NCBI RefSeq assembly: GCF_002305895.1
Contig: NZ_CP022203.1
Coordinates: 8,884,001-8,948,000, forward strand
DNA length: 64,000 bases
Direction: 5' to 3'
Source: Corallococcus macrosporus DSM 14697
GTDB lineage: Bacteria; Myxococcota; Myxococcia; Myxococcales; Myxococcaceae
Each line of letters opens with the position of its first letter. The stretch's first letter is position 1. Shown one piece after another: positions 14,260-26,443 of this stretch. The translations under genes were made by a program, and so were the position numbers. The notes under the pieces are model-generated. The model saw nothing but the letters and a program-made list of their open reading frames with translations, did no database searches and was not told where the DNA came from.

Positions 14260-16470
14260 ATGCGTTCACGAACGAAGGCGGGCGCCGCCATCCTGTCGGG
14301 CGCGCTGCTGGCCGGTGGCACCGTGACGGTGGCGCGGGCCGTGGGCGCGGAGGCGCAGGGCGCGGCGGCGACGGGCACAAGCAACGCGGCGAGCACGGGC
14401 AACGCGGCGAGCACGGGCAACGCCGCCACGACGCCCGGCACCGGCACAGAGCAGACCGCGCCGGTGATGCTGTACGACGGCGGTCTGTCCCCAGATTGGA
14501 AGGACCTCGGCTGGGCGCAGCGCGCGCTGCCCAAGGGCGCTCCCGCGCGGATGCGCCTGTTCAACTACGCCGGGTGGATTCTCTACCGGCCCAAGCTGGA
14601 GGGCACCTTCGGCGCGCTCATGTTCCGGTTCAGCGCGCCGGAGTCCTTCGGCGAGTTCCTGGAGGTCCGCCTGGACGCCCCGGGCGCCGCCAGATTCCCC
14701 CGCGTCCCCATCATCCCCGAGCTCCAGGTCCGCAAGGACGGCGAGTGGTCTGAAATCGTCATCCCCATGGAGCAGCTCAACCCGCGCGGCGAGCCCTTCG
14801 ACCGCGTGGTGTTTCGCGCGGCCAAGAGCGTGGGCCGGGAGTGGGTGCTCTTCGACAAGGTGGCGCTGGTGCCGCTGCCGCCGGACCTGGCCGCCGCGCT
14901 GGCCGCGGGAGGCGGCCGCCAGGGTCAGGGCAGTGGCCGCGAGGCGCCCATGACCATCGACTGCACCGCGCCGGGCCACCGCATCAGCCCGCTCATCTAC
15001 GGCATCGCCTTCGACGGGCTCACGGAGAAGCGCGACAAGCACCAGTACGAGCTGGGCGCCACCACGCGCCGCTGGGGCGGCAACCCCACGTCCCGCTACA
15101 ACTGGAAGCTGGGCGGCGCGTGGAACACGGCCAACGACTGGTTCTACCAGAACGTCGACATCGGCCTGAGCTACGACGACTTCCTGGAGTCCAACCGCAA
15201 GCACGGCATGACGTCCGCGCTGACGGTGCCCATCCTGGGCTGGGTGGCCAAGGACACGAAGTCCGTGGGCTTCCCGGTGACGCGCTTCGGGCCCCAGCAG
15301 CAGGAGGAGAACGGCTCGGGCAACGGCCTGGCCCGGGACGGCACGCCGCTGAAGCCCGGCTCGCCGACGCTCACCAGCGTGGAGGCGCCGCCGGAGTTCG
15401 TCGCCGAGTGGATCCGCGCCATCCGGAAGAAGGACCAGGCGCGGGGCCAGCGCAGCGTCCAGACGTACATCCTGGACAACGAGCCCATGCTCTGGAACTC
15501 CACGCACCGCGACGTACACCCGGAGCCCCTGTCCTATGACGGGCTGCTGGAGCGCACGATTGCCTACGGCACGGTGGTGCGGAAGGAAGACCCGGAGGCC
15601 CTCATCGCCGGCCCGGCCGAGTGGGGCTGGACGAACTACCTGTGGTCCGCGTTGGACTTCGCGCCGGGGAAGATGCCGCACTCGGACCGGCGCGCGCACG
15701 GCAACGTCCCGCTGCTCCCCTGGTACCTGCGGCAGCTCCGCGAGCATGAGAAGAAGACGGGCGTGCGGCTGCTCGACATCGTGGACCTGCACTTCTATCC
15801 ACAGACGAACGTGGGCGTCGGCCTGGAGGGCAACACGGACCCGGCCACCAACGCGCGCCGCATCCGCTCCACGCGCGGGCTGTGGGACCCCACCTACAAG
15901 GACGAGTCCTGGATTGGCGAGCCCGTGCGCCTCATCCCGCGCATGAAGGAGTGGATTGCCGAGAACTCCCCGGGCCTGCGCATCTCCATTGGCGAGTACA
16001 ACTTCGGCGCCTTCCGGCACATGAGCGGCGGGCTGGCGCAGGCGGAGGCGCTGGGCCGCTTCGCGCAGGAGAACATCTACTCCGCCTACTTCTGGCAGTA
16101 CCCCACGGAGGGCTCGCCGGTGTTCTGGGCGTTCCGCGCGTTCCGGAACTTCGACGGCAAGGGGGGCCGCTTCCAGGACCTGTGGGTGCCAGCGAAGGCC
16201 GCGGAGAACACCAGCGTGTTCGCCTCGCGCGACGAGGCGGGCGGCAAGCTGGTGGCGGTGGTGCTCAACTTCGACCCGGACCAGGCCGCCCAGGCGCGGA
16301 TTGAACTCAAGGGCTGCGGGACACTCGACAGCGTGCGCGTGCTGGGCTACTCGGGCGCACCTGGGGGGTTCACCGAGCAGACTCCCGGCGCGAAGGCCGC
16401 AAGCTCCCTGACCCAGCGGCTGCCGCCCTATTCCATGACCGTGCTCGACCTGACGGTGAAGAAGCCATGA
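14260..16470 (+). CDS. epsB: Exported GH44-like glycoside hydrolase (EpsB type)
   Basis: This exported hydrolase has 736 residues. I start it at ATG 14260 (MRSRTKAGAAILSGALLAGG), which gives a signal peptide ending near ARAVGAEAQG; a GTG lies one codon upstream at 14257. After a repetitive linker of GNAAST/ATGTSN units (residues about 38-60) comes a jelly-roll carbohydrate-binding region and then a (beta/alpha)8 domain starting at HRISPLIYGIAFDG. The GH44 hallmarks are WGGNPTSRYNWKLG, the acid/base Glu in YILDNEPMLWN and the nucleophile Glu in ISIGEYNFGAF. Family GH44 members are endo-beta-glucanases and xyloglucanases. Here it probably trims or releases EPS chains during export. It overlaps the transferase gene downstream by four bases. 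Confidence 0.85.
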   Translation: MRSRTKAGAAILSGALLAGGTVTVARAVGAEAQGAAATGTSNAASTGNAASTGNAATTPGTGTEQTAPVMLYDGGLSPDWKDLGWAQRALPKGAPARMRLFNYAGWILYRPKLEGTFGALMFRFSAPESFGEFLEVRLDAPGAARFPRVPIIPELQVRKDGEWSEIVIPMEQLNPRGEPFDRVVFRAAKSVGREWVLFDKVALVPLPPDLAAALAAGGGRQGQGSGREAPMTIDCTAPGHRISPLIYGIAFDGLTEKRDKHQYELGATTRRWGGNPTSRYNWKLGGAWNTANDWFYQNVDIGLSYDDFLESNRKHGMTSALTVPILGWVAKDTKSVGFPVTRFGPQQQEENGSGNGLARDGTPLKPGSPTLTSVEAPPEFVAEWIRAIRKKDQARGQRSVQTYILDNEPMLWNSTHRDVHPEPLSYDGLLERTIAYGTVVRKEDPEALIAGPAEWGWTNYLWSALDFAPGKMPHSDRRAHGNVPLLPWYLRQLREHEKKTGVRLLDIVDLHFYPQTNVGVGLEGNTDPATNARRIRSTRGLWDPTYKDESWIGEPVRLIPRMKEWIAENSPGLRISIGEYNFGAFRHMSGGLAQAEALGRFAQENIYSAYFWQYPTEGSPVFWAFRAFRNFDGKGGRFQDLWVPAKAAENTSVFASRDEAGGKLVAVVLNFDPDQAAQARIELKGCGTLDSVRVLGYSGAPGGFTEQTPGAKAASSLTQRLPPYSMTVLDLTVKKP

Positions 16471-17282
16471 GCTCCGCCGCGACTCCCGTGCCTCCTCAGT
16501 CCCCGTTCACCACCGGCCGCGCGCGCCTGAACATCGGCCAGCTCGCCATCGACCAGCTCACCTTCGAGGAAGCGGTGACAGAGATTGGCCGGCTGGTGGA
16601 TTCACGCCAGGGCGGCTACGTCTTCACGGCCAACGTGGACCACGTGGTGCTGGCCGAGGACAACGTGCCGTTCCGCGAGGCGTACTCGCGCGCCACGATT
16701 TCGGTGGTGGATGGGATGCCCATTGTCTGGGCCTCGCGCGCCATGGACGTGTCGCTGCCCGAGCGCATCGCCGGCTCCGACCTCATCCTCCCGCTGATGA
16801 AGCTGGGGGCGGAGCGCAAGTGGCGCGTCTTCCTCCTGGGCGCGGGCCCCGGCGTGGCGGAGAAGGTGGGCCGCATCGTCAGCGAGCAGTACGGCGTGGA
16901 GGTGGTGGGCTGGGATTCGCCCATGGTGCGCCTGGACGGCGGCGACGCGCAGAACGACCCGATCGTGGCGAAGATTCGCGAGAAGGACCCGCACCTGCTC
17001 CTGGTGGCGCTGGGCAGCCCGAAGCAGGAGGTGTGGATTTCGCAGGTCGCGTCCAAGCTGGGCCCCACGGTGGCCATTGGGATTGGCGCGGGGTTGGACT
17101 TCATCGCCGGGACGGCGAAGCGCGCGCCGGTGTGGATTTCGCGCGCGGGCTTCGAATGGCTGTACCGGCTGGTCAACGAGCCCAAGCGCCTGTGGCGGCG
17201 GTACATCCTGAATGACTCGCGCTTCGCCACCATTCTGCTGCGCGAGCTCTGGCAGCGGACAGGCGCGAAGAAGGCGGAGTAG
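16467..17282 (+). CDS. epsA: WecG/TagA/CpsF-family (GT26) glycosyltransferase (EpsA type)
   Basis: A 271-residue GT26 enzyme that would transfer a sugar such as N-acetylmannosamine or its uronate to a lipid-linked acceptor early in repeat-unit synthesis. The family signatures are clear: GYVFTANVDHVVLAEDN, SVVDGMPIVWASRAM, VFLLGAGPGVAEKVG, LLLVALGSPKQEVWI and VAIGIGAGLDFIAGTAKRAP. A basic C-terminal tail after PKRLWRRYILND is the usual membrane-docking region of TagA-like proteins. It is the last gene of the tightly packed eps group; a 103-bp gap follows before the type VI module, so a promoter change is likely there. The symbol follows M. xanthus epsA by order and family. Confidence 0.87.
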   Translation: MSSAATPVPPQSPFTTGRARLNIGQLAIDQLTFEEAVTEIGRLVDSRQGGYVFTANVDHVVLAEDNVPFREAYSRATISVVDGMPIVWASRAMDVSLPERIAGSDLILPLMKLGAERKWRVFLLGAGPGVAEKVGRIVSEQYGVEVVGWDSPMVRLDGGDAQNDPIVAKIREKDPHLLLVALGSPKQEVWISQVASKLGPTVAIGIGAGLDFIAGTAKRAPVWISRAGFEWLYRLVNEPKRLWRRYILNDSRFATILLRELWQRTGAKKAE

Positions 17283-17385: not shown

Positions 17386-18405
17386 ATGCGGAACGCCATC
17401 GACAACCGGACACCGTTCGCCTGCGAGCCCTTCGTGCTCCCGGATGAAGACGGACGTCCCACGCTCGTGCTCGTCGTCAAGGCGACCTACCGGCTCGGGC
17501 AGGGCGCGCTGCGGCTCGCGGAGAAGCAGGTCCCCGTGAATGCAGGGGGCACGTGGTGGGGGCCCCCAGAGGCGTCCAGCTACCGCTACGAGCCCGAGTG
17601 CGCCCCCTTCAAGCCCGCCGCGGACATCGTGCTGGTGGGGCACGCCCATGCCCGCGAGCGCAACACCACCTCCCTCCTGGTGTCGCTGAAGGTCGGAACG
17701 GCGCAGAAGGCCGTGCGCGTCGTGGGCGACAGGGTGTGGTTCAAGAGCCTGGGGAGCGTCTCCATGACGCGTCCCCTGCCCTTCGAGCGGATGCCCCTGC
17801 GGTATGAGCGGGCCTTCGGTGGGTGGGACCGCGGCGCCCCGGACCCGGCCCGCCATGCCTTCGAGCCGCGCAACCCCGTGGGCGTGGGCTTCCGCGTGGA
17901 CTCGAGGTCCTTCGAGGGGGAGCTCCGCCTGCCGAACCTGGAGGACCCGGAGCACCCGCTGAAGCAACCGGGCCAGCGCGTGCCTCCCGCGGGGTTTGGC
18001 TTCCTCTCCCCGCACTGGCAGCCACGCGCGGCCTTCGCGGGCACCTACGACGAGGCCTGGCGCAAGCAGCGCATGCCCCGGCTGCCGAAGGACTTCGACC
18101 GGCGCTACTACAACGCCGCGCCCGCCGGCCTGGTGGTGCCGGGCTACCTGAAGGGAGGCACCCCCGTCACGGTCGTCAACGCCTCCCCGCGGCCCCTCTC
18201 CTTCCAGCTCCCCGCCGAAGCTCCACCCGAGGTGAGCGTGAGCCTGTCCTTCTCGGGGGATACGCCCATGGCGCTGAAGCCCGACACCTGCATCATCGAC
18301 ACGGATGACGCGTGCGTCATGCTCCTGTGGCGAGGGAGCGTCACCCTGTGGGACGGGCCCGACGACGTCTGGGACATCGCGGTGAAGCCACCTTCAGTGG
18401 GATAG
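17386..18405 (+). CDS. DUF2169 type VI secretion-associated protein
   Basis: A 339-residue protein whose N-terminus (TPFACEPFVLPDEDGRPTLVLVVKATYRL) and the block PLPFERMPLRYERAFGGWD, PRNPVGVGFR-like and NPVG segments are hallmarks of DUF2169. That domain is found in type VI secretion loci near PAAR and DUF4150 tip genes, where it is thought to act as an adaptor or chaperone for loading effectors on the spike. It is cytosolic, with no signal peptide. It leads a co-directional run of ten genes with gaps of at most a few tens of bases, and overlaps nothing upstream. The assigned start, MRNAIDNRTPFACEP, has only a weak ribosome-binding site. No structural type VI genes (sheath, baseplate, ClpV) are in the window, so this is a detached cargo module. 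Confidence 0.8.
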   Translation: MRNAIDNRTPFACEPFVLPDEDGRPTLVLVVKATYRLGQGALRLAEKQVPVNAGGTWWGPPEASSYRYEPECAPFKPAADIVLVGHAHARERNTTSLLVSLKVGTAQKAVRVVGDRVWFKSLGSVSMTRPLPFERMPLRYERAFGGWDRGAPDPARHAFEPRNPVGVGFRVDSRSFEGELRLPNLEDPEHPLKQPGQRVPPAGFGFLSPHWQPRAAFAGTYDEAWRKQRMPRLPKDFDRRYYNAAPAGLVVPGYLKGGTPVTVVNASPRPLSFQLPAEAPPEVSVSLSFSGDTPMALKPDTCIIDTDDACVMLLWRGSVTLWDGPDDVWDIAVKPPSVG

Positions 18406-18410
18406 CGGCC

Positions 18411-19520
18411 ATGACACCCCTCGCGATGACAGGTCTGGGCATGGTGACGACGGTCGGCCATGACCTCGTGACGGCCTATGGCGCCCTCCGATGCGGGATG
18501 GCCAGGCCCTGGCCCGTGGAGTTCGAGGTGCCCGCAGACGCGGGCAACGGCAACGAGCACCTCACCGCCCACCCGCTGCGCGGCATCACCGATGGCTTCC
18601 AGGGGCTCGGGCGCTACCTGCGGATGGGGCTCCACGCCATGGAGGACCTGCTGCACCAGGGAGGCCTCCGCCAGGAGCCCGCCCGGTTCTGGCAGGGCAC
18701 GGGGCTCTACGTCGGTCTGACTCGGACAAGGAACCGGGAGCTCGATTTCTACGACGACATCCTCCAGGAGCAACTGCCCGCGCGGCTCGTGGCCGAGGCC
18801 GGGCTCGCCATCCCGGAGCACCGCCAGCACGTCGTGTTCCGGGGGCACGCCGCCGCGCTCTGGGCGCTGCGCGAGGCGTCCACCGCCATCGAGCAGGGGC
18901 ACGTCGAGCGCGCGCTCGTGCTGGGCGTGGACAGCCTCCTGGAGAGTGACACCCTGGCCCTGCTGGCGGCCACGCGGCGGCTGAAGCTGACCATCAAGCC
19001 AAGGGGACTCGTCCCGGGCGAGGCCGCGGCGGCCATCCTCCTCGAGCCGCTCCGTGACGCCAGGCGCCGGGAGGCGGTCATCCGTTGCACCGTGGAGGCC
19101 ACCGAGACGGGGCGGGAGCAGGCCACTCGCGCCTCCGGTGCCCGGTCCGCCGGTACGGCGCTGTCGGAGGTCATTGCCCGCGTCCTCCCCCAGGAGCGCC
19201 CGCTGCGGGCCATCTACGGGGACCTCAACGGGGAGGACAGCCGGGCCGACGAGTGGGCCCACACGCTCGTGCGGCTGTCGGAGGAGCACGACCTCTCCGC
19301 GGCCGCACAGCACTGGCCGGCCGTGTCCCTGGGAGACACGGGTGCCGCCAGCGGCGCGGTGGCCCTGGCCGCGGGGGCGCATGCCCTGTGGCGCCGTCAC
19401 GTCAGCGGGGGGGATATCCTGGTGTGGTCCAGCGCGGACAGCGGTGAGGTGGCCGCCGCCATCCTCCGGGGGGCTGACCCGCTCGCTTCTGCTCCAACCC
19501 CGCAGGGAGGACGCCGATGA
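18411..19520 (+). CDS. Ketosynthase-fold protein lacking recognisable catalytic residues, type VI module
   Basis: This 369-residue protein follows the thiolase/beta-ketoacyl synthase pattern: an opening MTGLGMVTTVGHDLVTAYGALRCG, a nucleophile-elbow region RGHAAALWALREASTAIEQGHV followed by LVLGVDSLLE, the VPGEAAAAILLEPL strand and SLGDTGAASGAVALAAG. In active enzymes the elbow holds Cys (ACSSSL) and later a His in HGTGT. Here the elbow reads FRGHAAAL and the later motif YGDLNGEDSRADEW, so both catalytic residues seem to be gone. The start is ATG 18411, five bases after the DUF2169 stop; the frame is open upstream to 18312 but shadows that gene. Related proteins occur beside DUF2169/DUF4150 genes in type VI loci, so a structural role in effector handling is inferred. 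Its stop overlaps the nuclease gene start by four bases. Confidence 0.72.
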   Translation: MTPLAMTGLGMVTTVGHDLVTAYGALRCGMARPWPVEFEVPADAGNGNEHLTAHPLRGITDGFQGLGRYLRMGLHAMEDLLHQGGLRQEPARFWQGTGLYVGLTRTRNRELDFYDDILQEQLPARLVAEAGLAIPEHRQHVVFRGHAAALWALREASTAIEQGHVERALVLGVDSLLESDTLALLAATRRLKLTIKPRGLVPGEAAAAILLEPLRDARRREAVIRCTVEATETGREQATRASGARSAGTALSEVIARVLPQERPLRAIYGDLNGEDSRADEWAHTLVRLSEEHDLSAAAQHWPAVSLGDTGAASGAVALAAGAHALWRRHVSGGDILVWSSADSGEVAAAILRGADPLASAPTPQGGRR

Positions 19521-20641
19521 GCGCGAAGAAGGTCAACGACCCGGACAATCGGCACATCGATGAGCGGAAGTTCCTGATCGAGCTCCACAAGAAGAGCGGT
19601 GGCAAGCCCTGCTTCTGGAAGCACGAATACGGCACCTCGAGCGACGAGTGCATCGCCATTCCCAAGGGGGAATACGACACGCACGCCTGTCATTACCGGG
19701 CCAATGGCATCAAGCGCGCGGAGAGCGAGCCCGAGGTCTACAACACGCGCCGCATTCCGGGCACGGGGGAGGCTCGGAGCGACAACCGGGAAGTGGCGAT
19801 GAAGCTGGGCTTCATCGTCATGGACACGGCCCGGCGCAAGTACACCTTCAGTCGCGAGACGCATGAGTACACCACCCTGGCCGAGGACATCGCGGCCCGG
19901 AAGAACAAGTCAGAGGCGGGCAAGGGCACCCGCTTCCTTGACGCCTACCGCGGCCGCTACGGCAAGTCTTTGGGCTGGCTCGCGAAAGACAGGCACGCCT
20001 GGGACGTCAAGCACCGCATGACGCTGGACCCGCAGGACTTCAAGCAGGTCTACGGCGCCACCAAGAACAACGCGCTCACGGACTACGACGATGCCTTCCG
20101 CGAGCTGGCCACGCCCATCGTCGACAAGGCGCAGCTCGCGCCCATCAACTTCCACATTCCCCAGAGCGACAACCCCGCGATGCAGGGCCTGGGCAAGTGG
20201 TTCCCGTACGAGCACGACCACCACCACATGATTCCCGCCAGCGCGTTTCAGGAGTTCGTGCTCAACGGGCCCAGCACCGACCCGAGCATCATGAACTACA
20301 TGTCCCGGGCGCGCATCGTCATGCAGGGCACCTGGAACATCCACAATCCAGACAACATGATCCTCCTGCCGAACGAGGTCTATCCGGGGCGCATCCTGGA
20401 CCTCGCCGCCCACATTCCCTGGCAGATGGGCGCGGACCACAAGCCGTATTCGAGGGAGCTTGAATCGGCGTTGGAGCCCGTCCTAAAGCTCATCGACGCT
20501 GGGCTGAAGCAGACTCCCGAGACGCCGCATGATGCCGAGGAGACAGCGGCCGCCGATTTCTCCCAGGCGATGAAACGAATCTGTGACAAGCAGCGTGCGA
20601 AGTTCCTCAAGAAGGGGTTCTTCGTCCTCGAGCCCAGATGA
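19517..20641 (+). CDS. AHH/HNH-superfamily nuclease, probable type VI effector toxin
   Basis: A 374-residue protein with an unrecognised N-terminal half and a C-terminal nuclease. The N-terminal part carries Cys and His in CFWKHEYGTSSDECIAIPKG and THACHYRANG, which might bind metal. The nuclease core reads YEHDHHHMIPASAF (HHHMIP at residues 235-240) and later NIHNPDNMILLPNE, the AHH variant of the HNH/Endo VII fold used by many polymorphic toxins to cut DNA or RNA. There is no signal peptide, consistent with delivery by a contractile system. It overlaps the upstream ketosynthase-like gene and is followed at once by two Imm11-like genes, which would be its immunity partners. M. xanthus has related type VI nuclease effectors active in kin discrimination. 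Target nucleic acid is not known. Confidence 0.78.
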   Translation: MSAKKVNDPDNRHIDERKFLIELHKKSGGKPCFWKHEYGTSSDECIAIPKGEYDTHACHYRANGIKRAESEPEVYNTRRIPGTGEARSDNREVAMKLGFIVMDTARRKYTFSRETHEYTTLAEDIAARKNKSEAGKGTRFLDAYRGRYGKSLGWLAKDRHAWDVKHRMTLDPQDFKQVYGATKNNALTDYDDAFRELATPIVDKAQLAPINFHIPQSDNPAMQGLGKWFPYEHDHHHMIPASAFQEFVLNGPSTDPSIMNYMSRARIVMQGTWNIHNPDNMILLPNEVYPGRILDLAAHIPWQMGADHKPYSRELESALEPVLKLIDAGLKQTPETPHDAEETAAADFSQAMKRICDKQRAKFLKKGFFVLEPR

Positions 20642-20670
20642 CCCCGGCGCAACGAGGGGATGGGAATGTG

Positions 20671-21261
20671 ATGAACAACGAAACGGCGTATCAGGTCTTC
20701 AGCATCAACCCGGATCCCCGTGTAGCCCTCCTCCGGGACGTCAGTGCGAACGTCCCAGACTACATGCAGCTCACGGATGGCATCCCCCTGAAGGGGACCA
20801 TCCCGGAGTCGACGACCTTCACCCTCTCCGAGGAGGGCGGTGACATGCTCTGCGACTTCGTCGAGAACACCTCGGGGACGCTCATCGTCTCTTCCCGGGC
20901 TCGCGAGGCATTGGAGACGGAGGGCATCACGGGCGACGACTTCGAGTACCTGCCCGTCACCCTGAAGGACAAGCGCGGCCGCGCCCTGAAGAGTCGGTTC
21001 TACATCGTCAACCCGCTCCAGAAGGTCGAGTGCATGGACCGGGAGCGCTCGGAGTTCTCCGCCAGCGCCCGCACGGACAAGATTCTGTCGGTTCAACAGC
21101 TGGTAGTGCGGCAGGATATGGTGCCTGCGAGGCTGAAGCTCTTCCGGTTGGGCGAGTGGCCGCGGGTCATCGTCATCCGCTTGGACCTGGTGCAGCGGCT
21201 CCAAGAGGCGCAACTGACCGGCCTGTTCGTGGTCGAGCAAGGCGAGGATTTCATCTGGTGA
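20671..21261 (+). CDS. Imm11-like (DUF1629) immunity protein, first tandem copy
   Basis: This 196-residue acidic cytosolic protein resembles the Imm11/DUF1629 family seen in myxobacterial toxin loci; the block KSRFYIVNPLQKVECMDRERSEF is typical. I start it at ATG 20671 (MNNETAYQVFSINPDP) because the second copy aligns from the same place; the frame is open back to 20638. It should bind and block a toxin, most simply the nuclease encoded 29 bases upstream. About 89% of residues match the next gene. The differences cluster in the first 25 residues after AYQVFSIN and in the last 65, while the middle is almost unchanged. The stop overlaps the GTG of the second copy. Confidence 0.72.
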   Translation: MNNETAYQVFSINPDPRVALLRDVSANVPDYMQLTDGIPLKGTIPESTTFTLSEEGGDMLCDFVENTSGTLIVSSRAREALETEGITGDDFEYLPVTLKDKRGRALKSRFYIVNPLQKVECMDRERSEFSASARTDKILSVQQLVVRQDMVPARLKLFRLGEWPRVIVIRLDLVQRLQEAQLTGLFVVEQGEDFIW

Positions 21262-21845
21262 GCGAGATGGCATACCAGGTCTTCAGCATCAACTCGGATC
21301 CCCGGCTGGCTTATCTTGAGGATGTCAGCGCGAACGTCCCGGACTACATGCAGCTCACGGATGGCGTCCGCCTGAAGGGGACCATCCCGGAGTCGACGAC
21401 CTTCACCCTCTCCGAGGAGGGCGGTGACATGCTCTGCGACTTCGTCGAGAACACCTCGGGGACGCTCATCGTCTCCACCCGGGCTCGCGAGGCATTGGAG
21501 GCGGAGGGCATCACGGGCGACGACTTCGAGTACCTGCCCGTCACCCTGAAGGACAAGCGCGGCCGTGCCCTGAAGAGTCGGTTCTACATCGTCAACCCGC
21601 TCCAGAAGGTCGAGTGCATGGACCGGGAGCGCTCGAAGTTCTCCGCCAGCGCCCGCACGGACGAGATTCTGTCGGTCCGACGGCTGGTGGTGCGGCAGGA
21701 GCAGGTGCCCGCGGAGCTGAAGCTCTTCCGGTTGGGCGAGTGGCCGCGCGTCATCGTCATCCGCTCGGACCTGGTGCAGCGGCTCCAAGAGGCGCAACTA
21801 ATCGGCCTGTTCGTGGTCGGCCCGGGCGAAAAGTTCACCTGGTGA
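21258..21845 (+). CDS. Imm11-like (DUF1629) immunity protein, second tandem copy
   Basis: This is a near-duplicate of the preceding gene, 195 residues, with about 21 substitutions over 191 aligned positions. I choose GTG at 21258 (VSEMAYQVFSINSDPRL), which overlaps the upstream stop in the GTGA manner and aligns with the paralogue's start; ATG 21267 is the alternative. Changed positions include charge swaps (Arg to Glu, Glu to Lys, Lys to Glu) in the end segments, suggesting altered partner recognition. The nucleotide sequence of the middle (about 21340-21640) is almost identical to that of the first copy, which indicates recent duplication or gene conversion. The likely role is immunity to the same or a variant toxin carried by competing strains. 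Confidence 0.72.
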   Translation: MSEMAYQVFSINSDPRLAYLEDVSANVPDYMQLTDGVRLKGTIPESTTFTLSEEGGDMLCDFVENTSGTLIVSTRAREALEAEGITGDDFEYLPVTLKDKRGRALKSRFYIVNPLQKVECMDRERSKFSASARTDEILSVRRLVVRQEQVPAELKLFRLGEWPRVIVIRSDLVQRLQEAQLIGLFVVGPGEKFTW

Positions 21846-21864
21846 GCGTAAAGGGACGTCAAGG

Positions 21865-22647
21865 ATGAGCATGGACCCGGGATTCGTCAGCCTCCAACTG
21901 GAGCAACTCATCGACCTGCGGCTCGAGGCGCTGCGCAAGGGGAACGCGAAGCCCCGGCACGTGCTGGACCTCTCGCGCATGTTCCGGCGCATGGGGTGCG
22001 GCACGCTGCTGGCCGGCGGTGACACCAGCTTCTTCTTCCAGGGCCTCTTCTACGCCGCCGACGCCTACCTCCAGCTCCTCGAGCGCAAGGAGCGCGACCC
22101 CTCGCTGGCGGACCCCTACGACCTGGCGCGCGGCCGGGCCGAGCCGCTGCTGGATGCCCTGGCCCTCGGAGACGCGGAGCTGGTGCGCCGCATCGACGCC
22201 CGCGCGCTGACCCAGTACCGGGAAGGCATGGAGTACGAGGAGGACTTCTGGTTCTTCATGCTGCTGCCCCGGCTCCTGGACCCGTCCATCGGCGAGCCGG
22301 AGACCCGTGAGGAATTGCGCCAGATGCACGAGGCCCTGCAGGGAATCGTCTACCCCCGCTACGACGCGGTGGTGGCGCTGGCGCGCGGAGACCGCGAGGG
22401 CTTCGAAGCGGCGCTGGAGGCCCTCATCCAGGCCTGGACAAGCCAGTTTGAGCGCGACGCGGAGTCGGAGCGGGGCAATCCCTACGCGCTGGCGACGGAG
22501 GCCGAGATCTTCGTGGAGGGGCTGGCGCTCGTCCGGCTGGCGCGCATCCGGGGCATGCCCACGCGTGAGGAGTACCGCCTCATCCCCGCCGCGACGCTGA
22601 CCGCGCCTCCGGCGGAGCAGCTCCGCGAGCCCCTCTGGAAGGACTGA
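21865..22647 (+). CDS. Imm49-like immunity protein, first copy
   Basis: A 260-residue helical, acidic protein resembling the Imm49 family. Characteristic blocks are VLDLSRMFRRMGCGTLLAGG, AADAYLQLLERKERD, DLARGRAEPLLDALALGD and GMEYEEDFWFFMLLPRL. The second copy at 24718 shares these blocks, at roughly half identity overall by eye. It sits between the Imm11-like pair and the DUF4150 tip gene, 19 bases after one and 11 before the other, on the same strand. It probably neutralises a toxin, but no second toxin gene is visible in the module, so the partner may be elsewhere or carried by other strains. No signal peptide or membrane segment is seen. Confidence 0.62.
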   Translation: MSMDPGFVSLQLEQLIDLRLEALRKGNAKPRHVLDLSRMFRRMGCGTLLAGGDTSFFFQGLFYAADAYLQLLERKERDPSLADPYDLARGRAEPLLDALALGDAELVRRIDARALTQYREGMEYEEDFWFFMLLPRLLDPSIGEPETREELRQMHEALQGIVYPRYDAVVALARGDREGFEAALEALIQAWTSQFERDAESERGNPYALATEAEIFVEGLALVRLARIRGMPTREEYRLIPAATLTAPPAEQLREPLWKD

Positions 22648-22658
22648 CGAGGCAAGCC

Positions 22659-23123
22659 ATGGCCAACCATGTCGGCGTGAACAAGATGTCGGTGGTGACG
22701 AAGGACAGCAACGGCACCTCGGTGGCGTTCCCGGACGTCTGCAAGACACCGAGCCCGGCCGGCCCCATCCCCATTCCCTATCCCAACATCGCGAAGTCCT
22801 CGGACACGGCCAAGGGAAGCAAGACGGTGACGGTGGATGGCAACCCGCCGTGCCTGAAGGACTCCCACTTCAGCACCAGCACCGGGGACGAGGCCGGCAC
22901 CGCGGGCGGAGGCGTGGTCTCGGGAAAAACCAAGGGCAAGGCCGAGTTCGTCAACTACTCGTTCGACGTGAAGATTGAAGGCAAGAACGTGGCCCGGGCC
23001 ATGGACCTCATGCTTCACAACGACAAGAACACGCCTCCCACGCCGGTGCTCCAGCCCCCCGTGATGGCCGTGGGCCAGGGCACTGGCAAGAAGACGTGTG
23101 CCATCTGCAAGGAGGATTACTAG
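22659..23123 (+). CDS. DUF4150 PAAR-like spike tip protein
   Basis: This 154-residue protein has the DUF4150 pattern: KMSVVTKDSNGTSVAFPDVCKTP, then PAGPIPIPYPNIAKSSDTAKGSKTVTVDGNP and a second half with GTAGGGVVSGKTKGKAEFVNYSFDVKIEGKNVARAMDLMLHN. Proteins of this type replace PAAR at the tip of type VI spikes and carry effectors with them. A short C-terminal extension ends CAICKEDY, a CxxC pair that might bind zinc. It is a stand-alone tip without a fused toxin, so the AHH nuclease in the same operon is its natural cargo, probably loaded with help from the DUF2169 protein. It starts 11 bases after the Imm49-like gene and ends two bases before the next. Confidence 0.82.
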   Translation: MANHVGVNKMSVVTKDSNGTSVAFPDVCKTPSPAGPIPIPYPNIAKSSDTAKGSKTVTVDGNPPCLKDSHFSTSTGDEAGTAGGGVVSGKTKGKAEFVNYSFDVKIEGKNVARAMDLMLHNDKNTPPTPVLQPPVMAVGQGTGKKTCAICKEDY

Positions 23124-23125
23124 CC

Positions 23126-23374
23126 ATGGGGGCGCCAAAGCAGAACCCCGGCCACGCCCCCGGAGCGGACCTGGCCCGGCCCGAGGCCGGCGTCATCACG
23201 AAGGTGGATGGCAAGCGGGTCCACATCGAGGGCCAGGACGAAGTCGTGCGCTCCCGCGGCAAGGCCCGCATCACCCTGCGCCGCAACGGCCGGGTCTCCA
23301 TCCAGGGCGTCGAGGTGGAGTCCAGCGCCGTGGGCAACCACCGCATCAAGGGTGGAACGGTGGGCATCAATTGA
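23126..23374 (+). CDS. Small beta-rich spike-like protein, similar to the C-terminal part of DUF6484 proteins
   Basis: An 82-residue protein beginning MGAPKQNPGHAPGADLARPE. The region ITKVDGKRVHIEGQDEVV and then KARITLRRNGRVSIQGVEVE, SSAVGNHRIKGGTVGIN looks like the repeating strands of a VgrG/gp5-type needle and matches my memory of the end of DUF6484 proteins, which occur near type VI tips. It lacks the N-terminal OB-like part of those proteins. It may form a short trimeric beta-helix connecting the DUF4150 tip to something else. Its TGA overlaps the TTG start of the following HEAT-repeat gene, so the two are coupled. The ATG at 23126 is chosen because the upstream extension overlaps the DUF4150 gene. 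Confidence 0.6.
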   Translation: MGAPKQNPGHAPGADLARPEAGVITKVDGKRVHIEGQDEVVRSRGKARITLRRNGRVSIQGVEVESSAVGNHRIKGGTVGIN

Positions 23375-24699
23375 CGGGGCTGCGCGAAGACCTGCTCCCG
23401 CGCTGGGACATCTTCGAGGAGCACCTGGACGAGGCCACCTTCCTGTGGGCCCGGCGTGAACAGTGCCTCGTGTCGCCGCGCTTCGACCTGCAGGAGACGG
23501 GGGAGGAAGAGGCGCGCCTGGTGGCACACCTCGACGCGCTGGCCGAGGCCAGCGGCGTGGTGACCCGGAAGCTGGCCGAGCCCGCGCTGGAGGAGGATGA
23601 GCCCGCGCGCGTGTCCGCCGCGGCGTACGTGCTGCTCGCCGAGCGGGGCCGGGACGCCACCGGACTGTTACTGAAGGCGCTGGAGGCAGGTGACGCGGCC
23701 CGGCACGTGGCCATCCAGGGGGCCCTGGAGTTCCGGGAGGAGCCCGGGTGGGCCGAGCGGCTGGCGCCCCTGTCCGCGTCCCCGCTGCCCGCCCTGAAGG
23801 CGCTGGCGCTCGAGGTGGCCGCGTTCCACGGCGAGTCGCTGGATGCGGGCACGCTGACCTCGCTCGCCGCGAACGGGGAGCTGGCGGTGCGGGTCTCCGC
23901 GCTCAGGAGCGCGCGGCTGTTGCCAGAGGCGGCCCGCGCGGCCCTTGTCCGCGCCGCGCTGGCGTCGCCGGAGCCCGCCGTGTGTCTGGCGGGCATCGAG
24001 CTGGGGTTGCTGGGAGGGATGCGGGCCGCCTGGAGCGCATGCCAGGAGCTGGCCGGGGTGCGCTGCGCGGAGCGTGCCCGGGCCTGGGTGCTGCTGGCGC
24101 TGGGAGGCGGGGAGAAGGCCCTGGAAGTCGTGCTGCGAGGGCTCGAGGCGAAGGAGTCTCGGCACCAGGCCCTGTGGGCCCTGGGGTTCAGCGGGCAGGT
24201 GTCCGCCGCGGAGGTCTGCCTCAAGTGGATGGCAGAGGACCCGCCCACCTCCCTCCTGGCAGCGGAAGCCTTCTGCGCCATCACCGGCCTGCGCCTCGAG
24301 GGCCCCTACGTGGGGACGTCGCCAGAGGAGCAGGAGCTGCCGCCGCTCGATGAGGACGACCTTGAGGCGGACCTGTCACCCAGGCCCGAGCAGGCGCTCC
24401 CGGTACCAGCCGCGGACGCCATCGCGGACTGGTGGCTCGGCGCCCGCAAGCAGTTCGACCCCCAGAAGCGTTACCTGTACGGGGAACCCTTCGACGGCAG
24501 GGTGCTCCTCGCGGCGCTCGCCCAGGCGCCCATGCGCCGCCGGCACGTGCTGGCGCTGGAGCTGGCCCTGCGCAGCGGAGGGGCGCTCCGGGTGCGGACA
24601 CGAGGCCGCGTGTCACGCCAGTACCACGAGCTGAAGGAGGCCTCCGGCGCGCGCCAGCGCATCTCGAGCCAGTCCTTCGATGCGCTGATGTCGAGATGA
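23371..24699 (+). CDS. HEAT-repeat protein (TIGR02270 type)
   Basis: A 442-residue protein made mostly of short helical repeats (for example ARHVAIQGALEFREEPGWAE, LPALKALALEVAAFHG, LAVRVSALRSARLL, RHQALWALGFSGQVSAAEV). The opening LREDLLPRWDIFEEHLDEATFLW and the repeat region match TIGR02270, a family found in type VI-associated clusters of proteobacteria and myxobacteria. The start is TTG 23371, overlapping the previous stop; the frame is open upstream to 23098 but that shadows two real genes. A final conserved module reads DWWLGARKQFDPQKRYLYGEPFDG. HEAT scaffolds usually bind proteins, so a role in loading tip or cargo is an inference. No enzyme motif is seen. Confidence 0.72.
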   Translation: MTGLREDLLPRWDIFEEHLDEATFLWARREQCLVSPRFDLQETGEEEARLVAHLDALAEASGVVTRKLAEPALEEDEPARVSAAAYVLLAERGRDATGLLLKALEAGDAARHVAIQGALEFREEPGWAERLAPLSASPLPALKALALEVAAFHGESLDAGTLTSLAANGELAVRVSALRSARLLPEAARAALVRAALASPEPAVCLAGIELGLLGGMRAAWSACQELAGVRCAERARAWVLLALGGGEKALEVVLRGLEAKESRHQALWALGFSGQVSAAEVCLKWMAEDPPTSLLAAEAFCAITGLRLEGPYVGTSPEEQELPPLDEDDLEADLSPRPEQALPVPAADAIADWWLGARKQFDPQKRYLYGEPFDGRVLLAALAQAPMRRRHVLALELALRSGGALRVRTRGRVSRQYHELKEASGARQRISSQSFDALMSR

Positions 24700-24717
24700 C
24701 CAATCCCCGGAGAGGAC

Positions 24718-25494
24718 ATGGGCATCAAGGAGCTTGAGTTCACCACCGAGAACATCGGCCACCTCATCGACCTGAGGCTCCAGGTCCTGCGCGAGGGGAC
24801 CGTGCACCCCAAGCATGTGCTCGACGTGTGCCTCCTCTACCGGCGGATGGGGTGCGGCACGCTGCTGGCCAGCTACGACGCGGACACGTTCTTCTATCTC
24901 CTGTACCAGGCGGCGGACAGCTACCTGCAGTTGCTCGAGCGCAAGCACCTGTGGCCAGCGCTGGACCCCTACTACCTGGCGCGCAGCCGGGCGGAGCCGC
25001 TGCTGGATGCGCTGGCCCTGGGAGATGAGGCGCTGGTGCGACGCATTGACGCGCTCGCGGAGCCTCAATGGCAGGCGGGGATGGAGTACGAGGATGAGTA
25101 CTGGTCCCTCCGGCTCCTGCCTCGACTGGCCCTGCCTGAGACGCCACGGGCGGAGCTGTTCGACCTGCTGGACCGCCTGGAGCGGGCGGTGGACGGCGCC
25201 GAGTTCCCCCGCTTCGACGTCTTGAAAGCGTTGCTCCACGGAGACCCTGAGGCGTTCGAGGAGGCACTCCTGCGGGCCATCGAGGCCTGGCAGTCCCGGA
25301 TGGAGCGCGCGAGGAAGTCGGGAACGGGCAACCCGCTGGCCCTGGCCACCGACGCCCACGTGTTCATCGAGGGGATTGCCTTCGTCAGACTGGCGCGAGC
25401 CCGGGGGCTGAGGCTCCGGACGCAGTACCCTCTCATCCCGCCCCTCGCCCTGTCAGCCCCGCCCTCGGACATCGAGCGGCGCCCCCTCTGGTGA
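24718..25494 (+). CDS. Imm49-like immunity protein, second copy
   Basis: A 258-residue paralogue of the gene at 21865, sharing HVLDVCLLYRRMGCGTLLAS, AADSYLQLLERKH, LARSRAEPLLDALALGDEALV and GMEYEDEYWSLRLLPRLA. The two copies are separated by three spike-related genes rather than lying side by side. It closes the type VI module; the next 217 bases hold no gene. It is likely an immunity protein or an orphan of a lost toxin. The ATG at 24718 follows the sequence CGGAGAGGAC, a fair ribosome-binding site. There is no membrane segment. Confidence 0.62.
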   Translation: MGIKELEFTTENIGHLIDLRLQVLREGTVHPKHVLDVCLLYRRMGCGTLLASYDADTFFYLLYQAADSYLQLLERKHLWPALDPYYLARSRAEPLLDALALGDEALVRRIDALAEPQWQAGMEYEDEYWSLRLLPRLALPETPRAELFDLLDRLERAVDGAEFPRFDVLKALLHGDPEAFEEALLRAIEAWQSRMERARKSGTGNPLALATDAHVFIEGIAFVRLARARGLRLRTQYPLIPPLALSAPPSDIERRPLW

Positions 25495-25711: not shown

Positions 25712-26443
25712 GTGACGGAGCGCCCCTCTCCCCCACCCGCGCAGGACGACGACGACTACGGCATGTCCCTGCCGGCGCTGGTCGTCCTGCGCATCAGCAT
25801 CGTGTTCATCGAGCTGTTCACCCGGCTCTTCGACGTCCTCCTGCTGCTGCGCCACCCCCGGCTGCTCCCGCCCTACCTGCGCCTGTGGCTGCACGAGGTC
25901 CGCGTCTCGCCGTACCGGCTGAAGCGCTCCTTCGAGACGACTCGCGTGCTCCAGGCGAGCGGGCAGATTTTCAAGGAGCTGATGTACGGCGAGATGCCGG
26001 TACACACCGGGGTGTGGCTCTTCCGGAAGGCCGGCCTGGGCCCGGGCTCAAGGCTGGTGGACCTGGGCGCGGGACGCGGCCGCACGTTGATTGCCGCGCG
26101 CTGGCTGGGCGCGGAGGCCCGAGGCATTGAGCTGATGCAGCACCACGTCGACCTCGCCCGGGCGTCCGTGGAGAAGGCGGGCGCGCAGCTCATCGTCGGC
26201 GACGCGACGCGCGCGGACCTCCAGGACGCCACGCATGTCTTCACCAACTGGACGGCGCTGACGCCTCAGACGCGGGCCCGGCTGGTGGAGCGCTTCCGCA
26301 CCTGCCGCCCCGGCACGCGCATCATCACCGTGACGCGGCCCGTGGAGGCGCCGGGCTTCACGATTGTCTCCCAGCACCGGCTGCTCTTCACCTGGGGACC
26401 GGAGCACGTCTGGATTCAAGAGGTCTCGGAGCCACGCCGATGA
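25712..26443 (+). CDS. Class I SAM-dependent methyltransferase with N-terminal hydrophobic segment
   Basis: A 243-residue protein. The first 25 residues are acidic and Pro-rich, followed by a hydrophobic stretch (LPALVVLRISIVFIELF) that may anchor it to the membrane. The Rossmann methyltransferase core shows motif I LVDLGAGRGRTLIAARWLG, the acidic end of strand 2 in ARGIEL and a motif II-like TRADLQDATHVFTNWTALTP. The substrate is unknown; the post-I region (GIELMQHHVDLARASVEKAG) resembles DOT1-like or general small-molecule methyltransferases. It starts with GTG; a TATTCT box about 20 bases upstream is a possible -10. It overlaps the DUF4326 gene by four bases. Confidence 0.75.
   Translation: MTERPSPPPAQDDDDYGMSLPALVVLRISIVFIELFTRLFDVLLLLRHPRLLPPYLRLWLHEVRVSPYRLKRSFETTRVLQASGQIFKELMYGEMPVHTGVWLFRKAGLGPGSRLVDLGAGRGRTLIAARWLGAEARGIELMQHHVDLARASVEKAGAQLIVGDATRADLQDATHVFTNWTALTPQTRARLVERFRTCRPGTRIITVTRPVEAPGFTIVSQHRLLFTWGPEHVWIQEVSEPRR

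What the first reader, a model, noticed from the sequence alone, without database searches (positions are those of the whole stretch)
17386..25494. A compact ten-gene type VI cargo module without structural type VI genes
DUF2169, a ketosynthase-fold protein, an AHH nuclease, two Imm11-like proteins, an Imm49-like protein, a DUF4150 tip, a spike-like 82-residue protein, a HEAT-repeat protein and another Imm49-like protein are packed in one direction with overlaps of four bases or gaps mostly below 30. It sits directly after epsA, i.e. as an accessory block between the eps cluster and the conserved genes further on. All parts needed to load and neutralise one nuclease effector are present, but no sheath, baseplate, Hcp or VgrG.
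Basis: partly seen in the sequence, partly recalled or inferred. Interest (0 to 1): 0.72.

Follow-up and report, generated by a model that had tools for sequence, protein, structure and literature searches.

The report
Type VI toxin-loading module in Myxococcus
This stretch of a Myxococcus chromosome carries a ready-made kit (a DNA-cutting toxin, its probable antidotes and the parts that mount it on the tip of a molecular syringe encoded far away) of a type already known to let myxobacteria kill non-kin, but here with a recurring four-gene cargo unit that had not been recognised as such.

Summary
In detail: ten co-directional ORFs fill 17386-25494 with gaps of -4 to +19 nt. The reading 'type VI cargo module' is supported, but such a module is not unusual. 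The same genome holds one complete T6SS (5.91-5.93 Mb), two VgrGs, 13 DUF4150 tips, 8 DUF2169 genes and at least six more AHH modules with a free-standing tip. In M. xanthus such PAAR-AHH-immunity loci, all away from the single T6SS, are proven kin-discrimination loci, so lack of structural genes is the norm. The parts match the published DUF2169 'synteny type A'/Tvp class II set: DUF2169 (TvpA), catalytically dead ketosynthase (TvpD), PIPY/DUF4150 tip, a TvpC cut down to its VgrG-like beta-prism (the 82-residue protein), and a HEAT protein; VgrG comes from elsewhere. New here: in 57 of 67 loci, and in other genera and another family, pseudo-ketosynthase, AHH, Imm11 and Imm49-like genes occur as one cassette that covaries in sequence and also exists without tip genes. 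Imm49-like may therefore not be a simple antidote. The site after epsA is a toxin hotspot: 7 of 8 nearest relatives carry a SitA5 (outer-membrane-exchange) AHH toxin plus Imm11 there instead.

The parts
16467..17282 (+). epsA-type WecG/TagA glycosyltransferase gene; left boundary of the insertion site, conserved in all 27 Myxococcus genomes searched
17386..18405 (+). DUF2169 protein (TvpA/Tap2-type chaperone of the PIPY tip), 339 aa
   Evidence: Pfam DUF2169 3e-96; matches solved DUF2169 structure 8vth at 3.7e-25
18411..19520 (+). PRK06147-like pseudo-ketosynthase (TvpD), 369 aa; the column of the catalytic cysteine is not cysteine
   Evidence: NCBIfam PRK06147 5e-51; alignments
19517..20641 (+). 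AHH-type HNH/EndoVII nuclease effector, 374 aa; separate Cys/His-rich N-terminal domain of about 150 aa plus nuclease domain with intact HHHMIP...WNIHN motif
   Evidence: Pfam AHH 8.8e-5; alignment A1
20638..21261 (+). Imm11-family immunity protein, copy A
   Evidence: Pfam Imm11 3.8e-16
21258..21845 (+). Imm11-family immunity protein, copy B (GTG 21258 or ATG 21267); 170 of 191 residues identical to copy A: a lineage-specific tandem duplication
   Evidence: one copy only in L101 and L102
21865..22647 (+). Imm49-like all-helical protein, copy a (cargo-cassette position)
   Evidence: Pfam Imm49 3e-13; model pLDDT 95; position conserved in L101, L102
22659..23123 (+). DUF4150/PIPY spike-tip protein, stand-alone, with PIPY motif (PIPIPYPNI)
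   Evidence: Pfam Tox-PAAR-like 2.5e-42; sequence
23126..23374 (+). 82-residue TvpC remnant: VgrG-like beta-prism without the DUF6484 OB domain
   Evidence: homologues of about 170 aa in sister modules carry DUF6484 (6e-18) plus the same C-terminus; profile also hits the T6SS VgrG
23371..24699 (+). TIGR02270 HEAT/armadillo-like protein of the DUF2169 accessory set (TTG start)
   Evidence: NCBIfam TIGR02270 1.5e-82
24718..25494 (+). Imm49-like protein, copy b (position after the HEAT gene, conserved in L101 and L102)
   Evidence: Pfam Imm49 1e-11; 71% and 67-68% to the same-position copies
25712..26443 (+). methyltransferase-like gene; right boundary of the insertion site

Best explanation
It is a horizontally exchanged T6SS tip-plus-cargo module for killing non-kin myxobacteria. 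DUF2169 and the dead ketosynthase hold the hydrophobic PIPY tip (with, if it works, the TvpC remnant) until it is placed on a VgrG made from another locus. The free-standing AHH DNase rides on that tip and is fired by the single T6SS apparatus. In the recipient it degrades DNA unless the matching Imm11 protein is present; here that gene is duplicated. The pseudo-ketosynthase, AHH, Imm11 and Imm49-like genes form a cargo cassette that is exchanged and evolves apart from the tip/HEAT half. Shown here: gene content, conserved order, cassette recurrence and covariation, site polymorphism, an apparatus in the same genome. Inferred: delivery, DNase activity, which immunity gene is cognate, the role of Imm49-like proteins.
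For: Families match the published DUF2169 synteny type A and Tvp class II sets. Complete T6SS in the same genome: TssJ/K/L/M/B/C/E/F/G, Hcp, ClpV, plus two VgrGs. M. xanthus AHH toxins next to stand-alone PAAR genes away from the single T6SS are proven: PAAR deletion abolishes the colony boundary (as toxin deletion does), the toxins degrade DNA, and the paired immunity gene rescues E. coli. Imm11 is the documented AHH partner. Nuclease motif intact. Quartet in 57 of 67 loci, 17 of these without PIPY nearby, and in other genera and another family of the order. Mantel: AHH-Imm11 0.36, AHH-Imm49 0.40, Imm11-Imm49 0.49, Imm49-KS 0.47, but Imm49-PIPY -0.03 and KS-PIPY 0.05.
Against: No experiment on this locus. 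The AHH score barely passes the Pfam cut-off. The AHH model was poor (mean pLDDT 48), so the N-terminal domain's role is unknown. The 82-residue protein lacks the OB domain of TvpC and may not work. No VgrG lies in the block, so which VgrG it uses is unknown. Loci were collected by AHH, PIPY or Imm49 hits and the profiles were iterated on part of the same set, so cassette counts are not a random sample; distances between modules are not independent.
Confidence: 0.78

Rival explanations
1. Immunity depot: the Imm11 pair and the Imm49-like pair are all antidotes (a two-protein immunity per toxin, partly against foreign toxins), and the block is mainly defensive.
For: Orphan Imm11+Imm49 pairs without toxin or ketosynthase exist (L123, L139) and surplus Imm11 genes or Imm11+Imm49 pairs sit beside full cassettes (L128, L141). 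Imm49-like covaries most with Imm11 (0.49). Imm11 is duplicated here.
Against: An intact toxin and a full loading set are present. Imm49 stays single where Imm11 is multiplied (Imm11:Imm49 of 2:1, 3:1 or 4:1 in 12 loci). In all 5 loci where Imm49 is on the other strand from Imm11 it shares the strand of the ketosynthase-like gene.
Confidence: 0.4
2. Imm49-like proteins are cargo-loading partners of the pseudo-ketosynthase, not antidotes; together they attach the unfused toxin to the tip.
For: Imm49-KS covariation 0.47, same-strand pairing in 5 of 5 divergent loci, 22 same-strand KS neighbours, absence from the five fused PIPY-effector loci L029, L030, L032, L034, L036. The literature pairs Imm49 with REase-type toxins, not AHH, and the single adjacent immunity protein suffices in E. 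coli for the M. xanthus toxins, which by gene order is probably Imm11-type.
Against: Orphan Imm11+Imm49 pairs without ketosynthase (L123, L139) and one Imm49 alone (L137). No covariation with PIPY. The predicted fold is a TPR-like helical repeat with no telling match.
Confidence: 0.3
3. The block is a decayed island: TvpC is truncated, VgrG is missing and the nuclease is no longer delivered.
For: 82-residue TvpC without OB domain; no VgrG in the block.
Against: All ten frames are open, tightly coupled and with GC3 of 0.87-0.93 like the host genes; eight of the genes are conserved in order in two other genomes; M. xanthus loci also lack VgrG and are active.
Confidence: 0.12

Closest known systems
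M. xanthus PAAR-linked AHH kin-discrimination loci (MXAN_0050/MXAN_0049 and three homologues; PMC12077131)
   Same: AHH nuclease with its own N-terminal part, downstream immunity gene, stand-alone PAAR gene, no T6SS apparatus genes nearby, a single T6SS elsewhere, two VgrGs in the genome
   Different: Here DUF2169 adjoins, the toxin has a longer N-terminal domain of another type, Imm11 is duplicated and two Imm49-like genes are present; activity untested
DUF2169 'synteny type A' (Proteus pef-like, P. aeruginosa vgrG1b-tse7; Sachar 2025, PMC11883445)
   Same: DUF2169 + thiolase-like + DUF6484-type + armadillo-like + DUF4150
   Different: No vgrG in the cluster; PIPY not fused to the toxin; DUF6484 domain missing from the small protein; DUF2169 absent from most related myxobacterial modules (found in 14 of 41)
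Tvp class II (P. aeruginosa PA0096-PA0098; Monlezun 2026, PMC13373197)
   Same: TvpA, TvpD, a TvpC relative and a DUF4150 protein
   Different: TvpD here travels with the cargo rather than the tip; TvpC is reduced to a beta-prism; cargo is a separate protein
SitA5/Imm11 outer-membrane-exchange toxin locus
   Same: AHH nuclease and Imm11 families, same chromosomal site after epsA in relatives
   Different: Delivered by outer-membrane exchange (lipoprotein escort domain; from the family name and general knowledge), convergent to epsA, no T6SS parts

Membership tests
DUF2169 synteny type A / Tvp class II accessory module | DUF2169 protein (TvpA) | tested here: met
   Pfam 3e-96; 8vth 3.7e-25
DUF2169 synteny type A / Tvp class II accessory module | PRK06147 thiolase-like protein (TvpD) | tested here: met
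   NCBIfam 5e-51 over 355 residues, below the equivalog cut-off
DUF2169 synteny type A / Tvp class II accessory module | DUF6484-type TvpC with OB fold and short beta-prism | tested here: not met
   82-residue protein has the prism only; sister modules have the whole protein
DUF2169 synteny type A / Tvp class II accessory module | DUF4150/PIPY tip | tested here: met
   2.5e-42, PIPY motif
DUF2169 synteny type A / Tvp class II accessory module | armadillo/HEAT-like protein | tested here: inconclusive
   TIGR02270 1.5e-82; identity with the published IPR006911 component not checked
DUF2169 synteny type A / Tvp class II accessory module | vgrG in the cluster | tested here: not met
   full VgrG genes at 5.91 and 6.75 Mb only
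Myxococcus PAAR-linked AHH kin-discrimination locus | AHH nuclease with intact motif | tested here: met
Myxococcus PAAR-linked AHH kin-discrimination locus | stand-alone PAAR-type gene in the same locus, T6SS elsewhere | tested here: met
Myxococcus PAAR-linked AHH kin-discrimination locus | immunity gene directly downstream of the toxin | tested here: met
   Imm11 start overlaps the toxin stop by 4 nt
Myxococcus PAAR-linked AHH kin-discrimination locus | T6SS-dependent killing of immunity mutants | not testable with these tools
   needs strains
Imm49 immunity family (PF15575) | profile match above cut-off | tested here: met
   50.3 and 45.4 bits against 30.1
Imm49 immunity family (PF15575) | neutralises the adjacent toxin | not testable with these tools
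   needs co-expression

The most novel reading that the evidence does not exclude
Imm49-like proteins and the dead ketosynthase (TvpD) form a cargo-specific loading pair that fastens unfused toxins to DUF4150 tips, so an 'immunity' family has a delivery role and T6SS cargo moves between strains as a four-gene cassette (loader, toxin, antidote, co-loader) that plugs into separately encoded tips.
Probability: 0.27. Interest if true: 0.62.

Novelty: new variant of a known kind. Interest (0 to 1): 0.42.

Why it matters
It puts a sequence-only guess in its proper place: one of a large family of exchangeable T6SS tip/cargo modules that give myxobacteria their kin barcodes. It adds two testable points. 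First, cargo in this group travels as a four-gene cassette in which the 'PAAR chaperone' TvpD follows the toxin rather than the tip. Second, one chromosomal site has been filled by AHH-Imm11 pairs belonging to two different delivery systems (outer-membrane exchange and T6SS).

Tried and rejected
Polyketide or fatty-acid role for the ketosynthase-like gene: rejected; the active-site cysteine column is not cysteine and the best family is PRK06147. A VgrG or Hcp hidden in the block: none. Reading the 82-residue protein as a complete spike: rejected. The toxin's N-terminal domain as a general T6SS marker shared by unrelated toxins: in 145 genomes of the order it was found in 11 genomes, 13 matches; nearly all coincide with AHH matches, so no evidence of wider use. 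Structure of the AHH effector: seven sequences gave a poor model, so no fold search was made. Fold search of the Imm49-like model: only TPR-like helical repeats at Z up to 9 and no Foldseek E below 0.06; no informative match. Sequence search of Imm49-like against the PDB: nothing. Promoter/terminator scan: nothing above shuffles. A direct match to the M. xanthus DK1622 MXAN_0049/0050 sequences was not possible; assignment of L035 to that locus rests on gene order and position. An early idea that Imm49 belongs to every PIPY module was dropped: five fused-PIPY loci have none.

Full report
What is there. The block 17386-25494 holds ten same-strand ORFs with translational coupling: four 4-nt overlaps and other gaps of at most 19 nt. 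Profiles name DUF2169, a PRK06147-like ketosynthase-fold protein, an AHH nuclease, two Imm11, two Imm49-like proteins, a DUF4150 (Tox-PAAR-like) protein, an 82-residue protein without a family of its own and a TIGR02270 HEAT-like protein. The toxin, both Imm11 genes and the PIPY gene are lower in GC (62-65%) than the remaining genes (68-74%), as expected of recently exchanged cargo.

Corrections to parts. The 82-residue protein is the C-terminal VgrG-like beta-prism of a TvpC protein. Sister modules encode about 170-residue versions whose first half is DUF6484 (6e-18), and the profile also detects the T6SS VgrG of the same genome. The ketosynthase-like protein lacks the catalytic cysteine: where the PksJ ketosynthase has its active-site residue, the window has GHAAAL and paralogues have other residues. 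The DUF4150 protein has the PIPY motif. The DUF2169 protein matches the solved DUF2169 structure 8vth.

Apparatus. The genome is a single contig of 8,973,512 bases. It has one full T6SS: VgrG, TssJ, K, L, M, B, C, Hcp, E, F, G and ClpV between 5.91 and 5.94 Mb. A second VgrG lies at 6.75 Mb. There are 8 DUF2169 and 13 DUF4150 genes, none beside these apparatus genes. M. xanthus is described the same way: one T6SS, two VgrGs, and PAAR genes all away from it and joined to toxin-immunity genes. 'Without structural type VI genes' is thus the normal state.

Family of modules. Scanning each DUF4150 and DUF2169 neighbourhood in the genome gave seven modules with a free-standing PIPY, including this one: L031, L033, L035, L037, L038, L039, L040. 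Each has HEAT, ketosynthase-like, AHH, Imm11 and Imm49-like genes. Five loci (L029, L030, L032, L034, L036) have HEAT, DUF2169, ketosynthase-like and a PIPY-toxin fusion without Imm11 or Imm49. In Wang et al. 2025, four such M. xanthus toxins are shown to be PAAR-dependent kin-discrimination DNases neutralised by the adjacent immunity protein. I infer from position and order that L035 corresponds to MXAN_0050/0049; I could not check it by sequence.

Cargo cassette. I collected loci by three routes (AHH hits, free-standing PIPY hits, Imm49 hits without a PIPY or AHH nearby). Of 67 loci with AHH or Imm49, 57 contain the full quartet ketosynthase-like + AHH + Imm11 + Imm49, and 17 of those 57 have no PIPY in the fetched stretch. 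Several of the ten exceptions are cut by a contig end. In a further 16 loci from other genera and two other families, the quartet was again usual, including one genome of another family in the order (L185). In 48 non-redundant quartets, sequence distances correlate among the four (Spearman 0.25 to 0.49, all p 0.002). In the 32 that also have PIPY and HEAT, Imm49-PIPY is -0.03, KS-PIPY 0.05 and Imm11-PIPY 0.00; HEAT does correlate with KS (0.31) and Imm11 (0.39). So TvpD, described as a PAAR co-chaperone, follows the cargo here. DUF2169 was found in only 14 of 41 loci holding Imm49 and PIPY, against the near 1:1 ratio reported elsewhere.

What Imm49-like does. The 2012 survey pairs Imm11 with AHH and Imm49 with REase-type toxins. 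For a loading role: copy number stays at one where Imm11 multiplies, and in all five loci where Imm49 lies opposite to Imm11 the ketosynthase-like gene shares its strand. For an immunity role: orphan Imm11+Imm49 pairs with neither toxin nor ketosynthase (L123, L139), and the highest covariation being with Imm11. The two copies in the window are old paralogues, each with a same-position counterpart in two Archangium-type genomes. The predicted structure is a confident all-helical repeat without a telling match. I leave the role open, with immunity slightly ahead.

Origin and site. Full-length relatives of the toxin occur in two genomes of one other genus (69% and 59%; one is Archangium violaceum Cb vi76), in Corallococcus and in one other Myxococcus. 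The two Archangium-type loci keep the order DUF2169-KS-AHH-Imm11-Imm49-PIPY-HEAT-Imm49, with a single Imm11 and no room for TvpC. None of 20 other Myxococcus genomes has the module after epsA. The epsA-to-methyltransferase interval varies from 2.6 to 15.7 kb, and in 7 of the 8 nearest relatives the first genes after epsA are a convergent Imm11 gene and a SitA5-family AHH toxin, an outer-membrane-exchange toxin. In one of the seven (L086) another Imm11 gene lies between the two. The site has therefore been used by AHH-Imm11 pairs of two delivery systems. The window's genome keeps a SitA5 relative (75%) elsewhere.

Limits. No wet data exist for this locus; sampling was directed, not random; distances between modules are not independent; the delivery, the DNase activity and the immunity assignments are inferences from homologues.

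Noticed in passing
L081, L082, L084-L088, L097 (directly after epsA): SitA5-escort AHH toxin with Imm11 gene 16-26 nt after epsA, convergent, at the site where the window has its T6SS module: a toxin hotspot shared by two delivery systems.
   Followed up: yes
L123, L139 (about 9.3-10.7 kb in each): Orphan Imm11+Imm49 pairs with no toxin, ketosynthase or tip gene nearby; L137 has an Imm49 alone.
   Followed up: partly
L034:2672-3442: A 257-residue DUF6484 protein with two tandem beta-prism repeats, a longer TvpC variant.
   Followed up: no
L107 (own genome, about 103-107 kb): A quartet cassette whose toxin is related to the window's in both its N-terminal domain and its nuclease part, with two Imm11 copies and no PIPY, HEAT or DUF2169: a tip-less cargo cassette in the same genome.
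   Followed up: partly
own genome, 146399-146563 (L023) and 1.82, 2.25, 5.56 Mb (L026-L028): A weak VipB-like sheath match and three weak phage-GPD/VgrG-like matches outside the T6SS locus; possibly phage-tail or extracellular injection systems.
   Followed up: no
own genome, whole: 8 DUF2169 genes against 13 DUF4150 genes; most cargo modules lack an adjacent DUF2169, unlike the near 1:1 ratio reported for other bacteria.
   Followed up: partly
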